Assembly: GCA_018647605.1 (NCBI GenBank)
Contig: JABGSU010000012.1
Coordinates: 1-40,118 of the forward strand
Direction: 5' to 3'
Origin: Flavobacteriaceae bacterium
GTDB taxonomy: Bacteria > Bacteroidota > Bacteroidia > Flavobacteriales > Flavobacteriaceae
Length of the DNA: 40,118 nucleotides
Both the position numbers and the translations under genes were made by a program. Shown here one piece after another: positions 30,776 through 33,991 of this stretch (the stretch's first letter is position 1; the number at the start of each line of letters is the position of its first letter). A model generated the notes under the pieces. It worked only from the letters and a program-made list of their open reading frames with translations. It had not been told where the DNA came from and made no database searches.

Positions 30776-31813
30776 ATGGATTACAATCTTTTGCCCAATA
30801 CTGATATCAAAGTCAGTAAAATATGTTTGGGTACCATGACTTGGGGGAGACAAAATACAGAAGCTGAAGGACACGAGCAGATGGATTTCGCACTGGAGCA
30901 AGGTGTTAACTTTTTTGATGTAGCCGAACTCTATCCCGTTCCCGCCAATGCAGAAACCCAAGGAGAGACCGAACGCATCATCGGAACTTGGTTCAAAAAA
31001 ACAGCCCATCGGGACAAGGTCATCTTGGCTACCAAAGTCGCTGGACCGGGTGATTATACCAAACACATCCGCAAAAACCTCAGCTTTAAAAAAGCCCATA
31101 TCGACGAGGCCATCGATAAAAGCCTTAAAAGACTGCAAACCGATTATATCGACCTCTATCAATTGCATTGGCCAGAAAGAAAAACCAACACCTTTGGGGT
31201 GAGAAGTTTTCAATATGACCTCAACGATCCTTGGAAAGAAAATTTTGAGACCGTCCTAGACGCACTCGATCAAAATATCAAAGCGGGTAAGATCAGGCAC
31301 GTTGGCCTGTCCAATGAAAATCCCTGGGGGATCATGCGTTTTTTACAAGCCTCAAAATCTCCTACCACCAAAATGATTACCGTCCAAAATCCCTATTCCT
31401 TGCTCAATCGGCTCTTTGAAATCGGAAGCTCCGAGATCTGCCACAGGGAAAATATCGGACTTTTAGCTTATTCCCCCCTTGGCTTTGGAGTCCTGTCTGG
31501 GAAATACCGCAACGGAAAAATCCCGCCCAACAGTCGCTTAGCGCTGTTTGAACGTTTGGCAAGATATAGTGGAAAAAATTCCTTTCAAGCCACCGATCGC
31601 TACGCCGAATTGGCGGAAGAAGTGGGCCTTTCACCAACCGATTTGTCACTTGCATTTGTCAATGACCGAAGCTTTGTTACCTCCAATATCATTGGAGCCA
31701 CCACCATGGATCAACTCAAGGAAAATATCGCTACTTATCAAGTCAAGCTCTCTAAGGACGTCCTTAAAGCCATTGATGAAATCCATGAAGACATTCCCAA
31801 TCCTGCTCCTTAA
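30776..31813 (+). CDS. aldo/keto reductase (Tas-like)
   Basis: VSKICLGTMTWGRQNTEAEGHEQMDFALEQGVNFFDVAELYPVP; YIDLYQLHWPER; ITVQNPYSLLNR. Confidence 0.95.
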   Translation: MDYNLLPNTDIKVSKICLGTMTWGRQNTEAEGHEQMDFALEQGVNFFDVAELYPVPANAETQGETERIIGTWFKKTAHRDKVILATKVAGPGDYTKHIRKNLSFKKAHIDEAIDKSLKRLQTDYIDLYQLHWPERKTNTFGVRSFQYDLNDPWKENFETVLDALDQNIKAGKIRHVGLSNENPWGIMRFLQASKSPTTKMITVQNPYSLLNRLFEIGSSEICHRENIGLLAYSPLGFGVLSGKYRNGKIPPNSRLALFERLARYSGKNSFQATDRYAELAEEVGLSPTDLSLAFVNDRSFVTSNIIGATTMDQLKENIATYQVKLSKDVLKAIDEIHEDIPNPAP

Positions 31814-31906
31814 ACTAGGCTTCGGGCTTTTTTTCTTTTGTTCTCTTCTAAACAAAAAACAAATCTAGAATAAACTAACTTTGGCGTGCACCAAATCTCG
31901 CTACTG

Positions 31907-32050
31907 TTATGAAAAATCTATTTTTCTACAAGCTGGGTTATCTTCTTTTTTGTGACTTAAGAATACACAAGGTTGATTCTTTCTCTCTTGTTTTTCGAAA
32001 ATCCTAGACAATTCATCAAGTATCCCTGCTTTATCATATCCTTTAGTCAT
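31907..32050 (-). pseudogene. truncated N-terminus of a TIR-like domain protein (MTKGYDKAGILDELSRIFEKQERKNQPCVFLSHKKEDNPACRKIDFS*)
   Basis: PCVFLSHKKEDNPACRKI matches the beta-A/box-1 style start of bacterial TIR domains; the frame ends right after it; not in the supplied ORF list. Confidence 0.5.
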
Positions 32051-32119
32051 TGAATTTTGAGTGGTTCTGTTCACTTAAACACAACTAGTAGATAAACACC
32101 ATATAGCGTTTATATTCCT

Positions 32120-32280
32120 TTATTCACGCTTTTTATATTGTTTAGCTTCCTTATCTCCCAACAAAGCATAAAAACCAAAACCATTCATGGTAGTAGTAAG
32201 ATCGGGGGCTTATAAGTATATAAATTTTTTGGGGTAATTGCCAAACCCAACAAACACTTAATCTGTTGTATTACAACATT
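32120..32280 (-). pseudogene. C-terminal remnant of an unidentified gene with a frameshift at C5/G5 (32204-32208)
   Basis: Frame 1 NVVIQQIKCLLGLAITPKNLYTYKPP joins frame 2 DLTTTMNGFGFYALLGDKEAKQYKKRE* if one C is added. Confidence 0.4.
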
Positions 32281-32311
32281 TTATATGTGTTATTAACTAT
32301 ATTTATTGATG

Positions 32312-33991
32312 TTAAATCTTGGGCAAAGCCGAGATCAATTCTTGGGTATAAGGCTCTTGGGGGTGGAAGTACAGCTCATCGGCTTCACCTTCTTCTACCA
32401 AAACTCCTTTTTCCATAACCAAGATACGATCGACCATATATTTGACCACATTCAAGTCGTGGGAGATAAAGAGGTAAGACAATTGTAGTGCTTCTTTAAG
32501 GTCATTGAGTAAATTGAGTACCTGTGCCTGAACAGAGATATCGAGTGCTGCAACAGATTCGTCCAGCAGTAGCAATTGCGGCTCTGTTGCCAGAGCTCGT
32601 GCAATGACCACCCTTTGGCGTTGACCTCCTGACAGTTGATGGGGATAACGATGGTAATATTCAGCTCCCATTCCTACCTGTTCGAGCAACTGAAAAACCC
32701 TTGCTTTTTGGGCGGCTTTTCCGCTGACCAATTCGTGAACATAAAGCGGCTCAGCAATGGCATCTCCTATAAATTTAAGTGGGTGAAGAGCCGCAAAAGG
32801 GTCTTGAAAAACCAATTGGATTTCCCTACGAAGTGCCCTCAACTCCTTGGAGTTTAGTCCCACAATCGAACGCCCTTTGTAATGAATATCACCAGCAGAA
32901 GGCGCATCAAGATGGACCAAAGCCCTGCTGATAGTCGATTTTCCGCAACCTGATTCTCCCACCAAACCCAAGGTCTCTCCGGGGTAAAGGTCAAAACTTA
33001 CCTCATTCACTGCTTTCAGGCTTTCGTTTTCCTGAAACCAATGTCGTGTGAGAGGGTATTCTTTGACCAAACCTCTGACTTCCAATAGTGGTTTTTGAGA
33101 ATAAAGCGTTTTGTGTCTTTTGGCTCTCGACGCTTTGGAAATAGATTTAAAAGTATTTTGTTTTTGAGAAAAATCGGCTACAGTCGGCAAGCGCTCCAAA
33201 CGTTTGTCGGGTTGCGGACGAGCATACAATAAACCTTGAGTGTAAGGTTCTTGAGGGTTTTTAAAAATGTCCTCCACGGTCCCGCTTTCCACCAGCTTGC
33301 CCTCGTGCATCACCAAAACACGATCGGCAAATTGAGCCACCACACTCAGGTCGTGGGAAATGAATAAAACGCTCATTTTGTGGATTTTTTGCTGTTGCTT
33401 GATCAAAGACAGTATTTCTTTTTGAACGGTTACGTCCAGTGCAGTCGTTGGCTCATCGGCAATCAACAATTGGGGGGCACCGATCAATGCCATTGCAATC
33501 ATCACCCTTTGCTTTTGCCCACCACTCAGCTCGTGGGGATAGGCTTTAAAAATACGTTCTGGTTTTGGCAGTTGTACTTGTTCAAAAGCCTCCAGCACCC
33601 TATCATGCTGATCTTTGGGCGTCCCTATTTTATTTTTCTGCAAGCGTTCCATCACTTGAGGTCCACAGCGCATACTCGGATTAAGACTCGATTGGGGTTC
33701 CTGAAAGATCATTCCCAATTCCCTCCCCCGAATAATTTGCCAATCTTTGGTTGACAATTGGGAAAGGTCCTGTCCGCCCAACTCCATTTTTTGACTGCTA
33801 ATAGACAAGGGCAATTGGAACAATAAACCCGCAATGGAAAGGGCAGTGAGTGACTTTCCACTGCCTGACTCTCCCACAATGGCTACAATTTCATTTGAAT
33901 TGACCGTAAAAGAAAGTCCATTCAAAAGCAACCGCTCTTGAGATGAAACGGACAATCCTTCTACTGCTAACAATGGTTTTTTTCCTTTCAT
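32312..33991 (-). CDS. ABC transporter ATP-binding protein, two fused peptide-type ATPase domains (DppD-DppF / YejF-like)
   Basis: Two Walker A (GESGSGKS, GESGCGKS) and two LSGGQ(K/R)QRV signatures; 559 aa. Confidence 0.95.
   Translation of the reverse strand: MKGKKPLLAVEGLSVSSQERLLLNGLSFTVNSNEIVAIVGESGSGKSLTALSIAGLLFQLPLSISSQKMELGGQDLSQLSTKDWQIIRGRELGMIFQEPQSSLNPSMRCGPQVMERLQKNKIGTPKDQHDRVLEAFEQVQLPKPERIFKAYPHELSGGQKQRVMIAMALIGAPQLLIADEPTTALDVTVQKEILSLIKQQQKIHKMSVLFISHDLSVVAQFADRVLVMHEGKLVESGTVEDIFKNPQEPYTQGLLYARPQPDKRLERLPTVADFSQKQNTFKSISKASRAKRHKTLYSQKPLLEVRGLVKEYPLTRHWFQENESLKAVNEVSFDLYPGETLGLVGESGCGKSTISRALVHLDAPSAGDIHYKGRSIVGLNSKELRALRREIQLVFQDPFAALHPLKFIGDAIAEPLYVHELVSGKAAQKARVFQLLEQVGMGAEYYHRYPHQLSGGQRQRVVIARALATEPQLLLLDESVAALDISVQAQVLNLLNDLKEALQLSYLFISHDLNVVKYMVDRILVMEKGVLVEEGEADELYFHPQEPYTQELISALPKI

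What the first reader, a model, noticed from the sequence alone, without database searches (positions are those of the whole stretch)
31907..32050. Hidden truncated TIR-like gene start in an otherwise blank intergenic region
Seen: the largest intergenic gap (about 500 bp, 31814-32311) holds a minus-strand ORF, MTKGYDKAGILDELSRIFEKQERKNQPCVFLSHKKEDNPACRKIDFS*. An alpha-helical lead-in followed by CVFLSHKKEDNPACRKI looks like the start of a bacterial TIR domain. The frame diverges and stops where the domain should continue. Established: bacterial TIR proteins are often NADase or signalling components of anti-phage systems such as Thoeris. Inference: this is the scar of a lost defence gene; related genomes may carry an intact version at this site.
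Basis: partly seen in the sequence, partly recalled or inferred. Interest (0 to 1): 0.62.

Follow-up and report, generated by a model that had tools for sequence, protein, structure and literature searches.

The report
Broken-off start of a TIR gene
A Flavobacteriia-type genome keeps only the first 44 codons of what in other Bacteroidota and a Chlorobiota genome is a 193-codon TIR (immune-signalling) gene, so the stretch is the dead remnant of a lost, probably anti-phage gene rather than a working gene.

Summary
The minus-strand ORF 31907-32050 is real, and residues 1-44 are 70-73% identical to the N-termini of intact 193-aa TIR proteins in Marinifilum flexuosum and a Chlorobiota MAG. Similarity stops exactly after residue 44 of 193; the last three residues and the stop come from DNA that continues the 3' flank of the neighbouring AKR gene, shared with congener G005. 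The two homologies meet within about 4 bp (31918-31921), as in an end-joining deletion. The rest of the TIR gene, and any ThsB_TIR or TIR_2 match, is absent from the held assembly (84% complete). The lost part includes the putative catalytic Glu, so the peptide cannot be a TIR enzyme. None of 18 congeners has a TIR at this site; the AKR-ABC interval is an 18 bp to 3.7 kb site of changing cargo. Thus 'an intact version at this site in relatives' is not supported within the sampled genus; intact copies lie elsewhere, paired with a ThsB-like TIR gene. Ordinary in kind: a pseudogene remnant of a known domain family. Not excluded: an assembly error at the join.

The parts
31907..32050 (-). 47-aa ORF (55 aa if the GTG at 32074 is used): remnant of a TIR gene plus a 3-codon foreign tail and stop
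31919..32050 (-). codons 1-44 of the former TIR gene (of 193): N-terminal helix region, CVFLSHKKED first-strand motif, start of the next helix
   Evidence: 70% (Marinifilum) and 73% (Chlorobiota MAG) identity over residues 1-44; codon comparison
31907..31918 (-). tail DFS* : antisense of the AKR 3' flank, not TIR sequence
   Evidence: alignment of window 31794-31921 with G005 (L068)
31918..31921 (.). inferred recombination join: AKR-flank homology runs to 31921, TIR homology begins at 31918/31919 (up to 4 shared bases)
31814..31921 (+). 3' flank of the AKR gene, shared with congener G005 at the same place
32051..32081 (-). leader of the former TIR gene (weakly alignable with the DNA upstream of the Marinifilum and Chlorobiota genes)
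   Evidence: tentative
32082..32150 (+). repeated element bordering the TIR leader: 51 bp at 96% at G000:C207:3208-3258, 70 bp at 93% at G010:C55:11434-11503 just upstream of a 473-aa gene
   Evidence: hairpin z -3.2
32191..32284 (+). 94-bp segment present at 86% in inverted orientation in the same interval of congener G021
32293..32315 (+). dispersed 23-mer TTAACTATATTTATTRATGTTAA, overlapping the ABC-ATPase stop codon
30776..31813 (+). aldo/keto reductase gene: conserved left border of the interval
32312..33991 (-). ABC-transporter ATPase gene (two ATPase halves): conserved right border of the interval

Best explanation
31907-32050 is the 5' remnant of a horizontally acquired TIR gene of the TIR_2/ThsB-like kind. 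The intact gene (193 codons in its nearest relatives) lay between the AKR and ABC-ATPase genes, a site whose cargo changes in this genus, pointing towards AKR. An end-joining deletion with about 4 bp of shared sequence removed codons 45-193 and anything downstream (in relatives a second, ThsB-like TIR gene), and fused codon 44 to the AKR 3' flank, which supplies three codons and a stop. In relatives the intact protein probably works like a ThsB TIR, cutting or cyclising NAD+ on phage infection together with its partner TIR. The remnant has lost the putative catalytic Glu and cannot do that. Shown: homology, break point, flank continuity, absence of the rest from the held assembly. Inferred: horizontal origin, deletion in place, defence role, loss of function.
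For: Residues 1-44 match intact 193-aa proteins at 70% (Marinifilum flexuosum) and 73% (Chlorobiota MAG), and 53% in a Flavobacteriales MAG (195 aa); all matches end at residue 44. The intact protein finds only this fragment in the window's assembly (residues 1-45, E 1.4e-14) and no convincing match in 21 congeners (best other E 0.16). TIR_2 and ThsB_TIR profiles find nothing in the assembly and one gene in one congener. Window 31794-31921 aligns with the AKR flank of G005 and stops where TIR homology starts. 11 of 24 differing codons against Marinifilum are synonymous and 16 of 28 base changes fall at third positions, as expected of once-coding DNA. Intact relatives carry TIR_2 and ThsB_TIR domains, score to PADLOC ThsB models and sit beside ThsB-like TIR genes.
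Against: The genome is a 208-contig assembly at 84% completeness and no reads were seen, so a collapsed strain variant or misjoin at 31918-31921 is possible. Only one congener (G005) shares the AKR flank. The 44 codons hold no internal stop or frameshift, so continued translation cannot be excluded. No relative carries a TIR at this site, so 'deletion in place' against 'arrival of an already cut fragment' is undecided.
Confidence: 0.92

Rival explanations
1. Assembly artefact: the real population carries the intact TIR gene, and the assembler joined the AKR flank to the middle of the gene.
For: Assembly of 208 contigs, 84% complete, 4% contamination; no read data available here.
Against: The other 149 codons and any TIR_2 or ThsB_TIR match are nowhere in the assembly; both borders continue into conserved genes in the conserved order; the break falls where homology to a real congener flank begins.
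Confidence: 0.08
2. The fragment arrived as such: a DNA piece already cut after codon 44 was inserted next to the AKR gene, rather than an intact gene being deleted in place.
For: No congener has an intact copy at this site; the site takes up and loses varied cargo; a repeated element borders the TIR leader.
Against: The gene's start and apparently its leader are kept, which deletion from the 3' side explains directly; the rival needs two coincident break points.
Confidence: 0.25
3. A living small gene: the 47-aa peptide is still made and acts, for instance as a decoy that blocks TIR assembly.
For: Start codon and open frame intact; no internal stop in 44 codons.
Against: Not conserved: no match better than E 0.02 among 150 relatives; no TIR partner in the assembly to act on; the tail is antisense flank DNA.
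Confidence: 0.03
4. Chance ORF that only resembles TIR.
For: Pfam gives no match to the 55-aa peptide; PDB hits are repeat-protein artefacts summed over many weak repeats.
Against: 70-73% identity over 44 residues; score 166-167 against a shuffle maximum of 48.
Confidence: 0.005

Closest known systems
Intact TIR protein of Marinifilum flexuosum (NZ_RAPQ01000008.1, L085:4001-4582) and of Chlorobiota MAG JAADEE010000102.1 (L086:147-728)
   Same: 70-73% identity over residues 1-44, same start codon position, same CVFLSHKKED motif
   Different: 193 aa with full TIR domain and invariant W103/E107; followed by a ThsB-like TIR gene and a third gene; not at an AKR-ABC site
ThsB (TIR protein of Thoeris; PF08937, PADLOC ThsB models)
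   Same: Intact homologues match PF08937 (E 4e-9) and several PADLOC ThsB models (E to 4e-14). A two-TIR arrangement is known from S. aureus Thoeris (ThsB1+ThsB2, PMC12578639). Spacing of Phe30 to Glu107 (77) resembles F6 to E81 (75) of ThsB2 in that paper
   Different: No ThsA was recognised beside the homologues examined; the window has only a quarter of one TIR gene and no effector
SpbK (TIR anti-phage protein of Bacillus subtilis, PMC12847820)
   Same: Only PADLOC model touched by the fragment itself (E 0.006, 26 residues)
   Different: SpbK carries its TIR after a long N-terminal region (match at model 141-166 of 308); here the TIR starts at residue 28
Small TIR_2 protein of same-family genome G074 (L007) and Aureispira plasmid protein WP_309555583.1
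   Same: Same short lead-in plus CxFxSH motif; set among ThsB-like TIR genes
   Different: 33-38% identity to the fragment

Membership tests
TIR_2 domain protein (PF13676) | Homology of the N-terminal part to proteins that carry the domain | tested here: met
   70-73% identity over 44 residues to proteins with PF13676 (Marinifilum: E 5.8e-12)
TIR_2 domain protein (PF13676) | Whole domain present, above the curated cut-off | tested here: not met
   No Pfam match to the peptide; only about 17 residues of the domain remain
TIR_2 domain protein (PF13676) | Catalytic glutamate (E107 in the intact homologues, by analogy) | tested here: not met
   Homologous sequence ends at residue 44 of 193
Thoeris system | ThsB TIR gene in the genome | tested here: not met
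   PF08937: no match in the held assembly (84% complete)
Thoeris system | ThsA effector beside the intact homologues | tested here: inconclusive
   No SIR2 or macro protein among the neighbours scanned in L085-L087; a SLATT protein and an NB-ARC protein in L087; flanks only 4 kb
Pseudogene remnant | Homology to a longer gene that ends abruptly, rest missing | tested here: met
Conserved small ORF | Same short ORF kept in relatives | tested here: not met

The most novel reading that the evidence does not exclude
The intact relatives point to an uncharacterised Thoeris-like module: a small TIR_2 protein plus a ThsB-like TIR plus a third, unannotated protein (L085, L086), spread between phyla and without a recognised ThsA. 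The window would then be the scar of one such module in a genus that otherwise almost lacks TIR genes.
Probability: 0.35. Interest if true: 0.45.

Novelty: new member of a known kind. Interest (0 to 1): 0.3.

Why it matters
It gives a base-resolved example of loss of a TIR gene, probably a defence gene, from a small (about 1.9 Mb held) genome. It also marks the AKR-ABC interval as a changing-cargo site in this genus and points to intact two-TIR gene sets whose effector is not obvious. As a pseudogene remnant it is ordinary.

Tried and rejected
Pfam and PDB sequence searches with the short peptide alone were uninformative; the PPR hits are sums of many weak repeat matches. Phage and plasmid tblastn with the peptide gave only marginal hits, one of which (Aureispira) led on to the family. 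A scan of viral contigs found no relative. An AlphaFold model of the intact Marinifilum protein from four sequences is too poor to use (mean pLDDT 44.7), so no fold search was made. Rfam: nothing in the window. The idea that the dispersed 23-mer is an in-frame insertion was tested on DapF of the own genome and rejected there: congeners have no gap at that place.

Full report
Observation. The gap between the aldo/keto reductase gene (30776-31813, +) and the ABC-transporter ATPase gene (32312-33991, -) is 498 bp. It holds a minus-strand ORF, ATG at 32050, stop at 31907, MTKGYDKAGILDELSRIFEKQERKNQPCVFLSHKKEDNPACRKIDFS*.

What it is. The peptide alone is too short for Pfam and gives only a weak PADLOC SpbK match (E 0.006). 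The first real lead was two small TIR proteins with the same lead-in and CxFxSH motif, in G074 of the same family (L007) and on an Aureispira plasmid. An alignment of these with the peptide, run against 84,980 species genomes, returned four loci: Marinifilum flexuosum, 70% identical over residues 1-44; a Chlorobiota MAG, 73% over residues 1-44; a Flavobacteriales MAG, 53%; a Sphingobacteriales MAG, 55% over residues 23-44. The encoded proteins are 183 to 195 aa (the Flavobacteriales one counted from its homologous start codon) and carry TIR_2 and ThsB_TIR domains (the two nearest). Against shuffles and against all other ORFs of the window the match is far above chance.

Where it breaks. All matches stop after residue 44 (codon at 31919-31921). 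From the other side, the AKR 3' flank of the window aligns with that of congener G005 up to 31921. The two homologies overlap by about 4 bases, 31918-31921. The residues DFS and the stop are therefore antisense AKR-flank DNA. This is the signature of an end-joining event; that it was a deletion in place rather than insertion of a cut piece is inference.

What is gone. The intact protein finds only residues 1-45 in the held assembly. TIR_2 and ThsB_TIR profiles find nothing in it; the assembly is 84% complete, so absence is not proof. In intact relatives the residues W103 and E107 are invariant; the spacing of F30 to E107 resembles the catalytic Phe-Glu pair described for S. aureus ThsB2 (PMC12578639, read). 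The remnant keeps the Phe and lacks the Glu.

The site. The AKR-ABC order is conserved in the congeners that hold AKR. The interval ranges from 18 bp to about 3.7 kb with unrelated contents: FG-GAP-like proteins, a DUF5916-like protein, a glycerophosphodiesterase-like gene, YdcF- and HAD-like genes (names by eye from the translations, not tested). None of the 18 other intervals holds a TIR match. With 70-73% identity to proteins from another order of Bacteroidota and from a Chlorobiota MAG, and almost no TIR genes in the genus, horizontal arrival is the natural reading (inference).

What the intact gene probably does. In Marinifilum and Chlorobiota it is followed by a ThsB-like TIR gene and a third gene with no Pfam match; in UBA2798 it sits with a ThsB-like gene, a SLATT protein and an NB-ARC protein; in G074 among ThsB-like genes within what reads as a type I restriction locus. 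This resembles the ThsB1/ThsB2 pair of staphylococcal Thoeris (PMC12578639), but no ThsA was recognised. A defence role is therefore likely but untested.

Borders. The upstream side of the remnant runs into repeated DNA: a 51-70 bp element also present downstream of ychF in the own genome and next to a 473-aa gene in G010; a 94-bp piece found inverted in G021; and a 23-mer with 15 copies in G021, 6 in G010 and 3 here. Their nature is unresolved.

Verdict. Confirmed remnant of a TIR gene; ordinary in kind; low to moderate interest.

Noticed in passing
window 32082-32150; L073 (G000:C207:3208-3258); L066 7435-7504 (G010:C55): A 51-70 bp hairpin-forming repeat (z -3.2) that lies next to the start of different genes in two genomes and downstream of ychF in the own genome; found in only 2 of 80 genomes searched.
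   Followed up: partly
window 32293-32315; L108-L127: Dispersed 23-mer TTAACTATATTTATTRATGTTAA: 15 copies in G021, 6 in G010, 3 in the own genome, 1 each in G016 and G001, none in the other congeners or in the reversed control. Two direct copies flank the cargo of the same AKR-ABC interval in G021. In DapF it is not an insertion.
   Followed up: partly
L066 5989-7410 (G010:C55): A 473-aa ORF without Pfam, PADLOC or NCBIfam match whose upstream DNA is the same repeat that borders the TIR remnant.
   Followed up: partly
window 31814-32311 and the same interval in 18 congeners: AKR-ABC interval is a site of changing cargo in this genus, 18 bp to 3.7 kb.
   Followed up: yes
L085 4001-5870, L086 147-1875: Conserved three-gene set: small TIR_2 protein, ThsB-like TIR protein, third protein of unknown family, in Marinifilum and a Chlorobiota MAG.
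   Followed up: partly
L038 (G011) and L070 (G001), AKR-ABC interval: A second decaying gene at this site: an intact 107-aa ORF in G001 appears to have a degraded relative in G011 (seen by eye in the translations).
   Followed up: no
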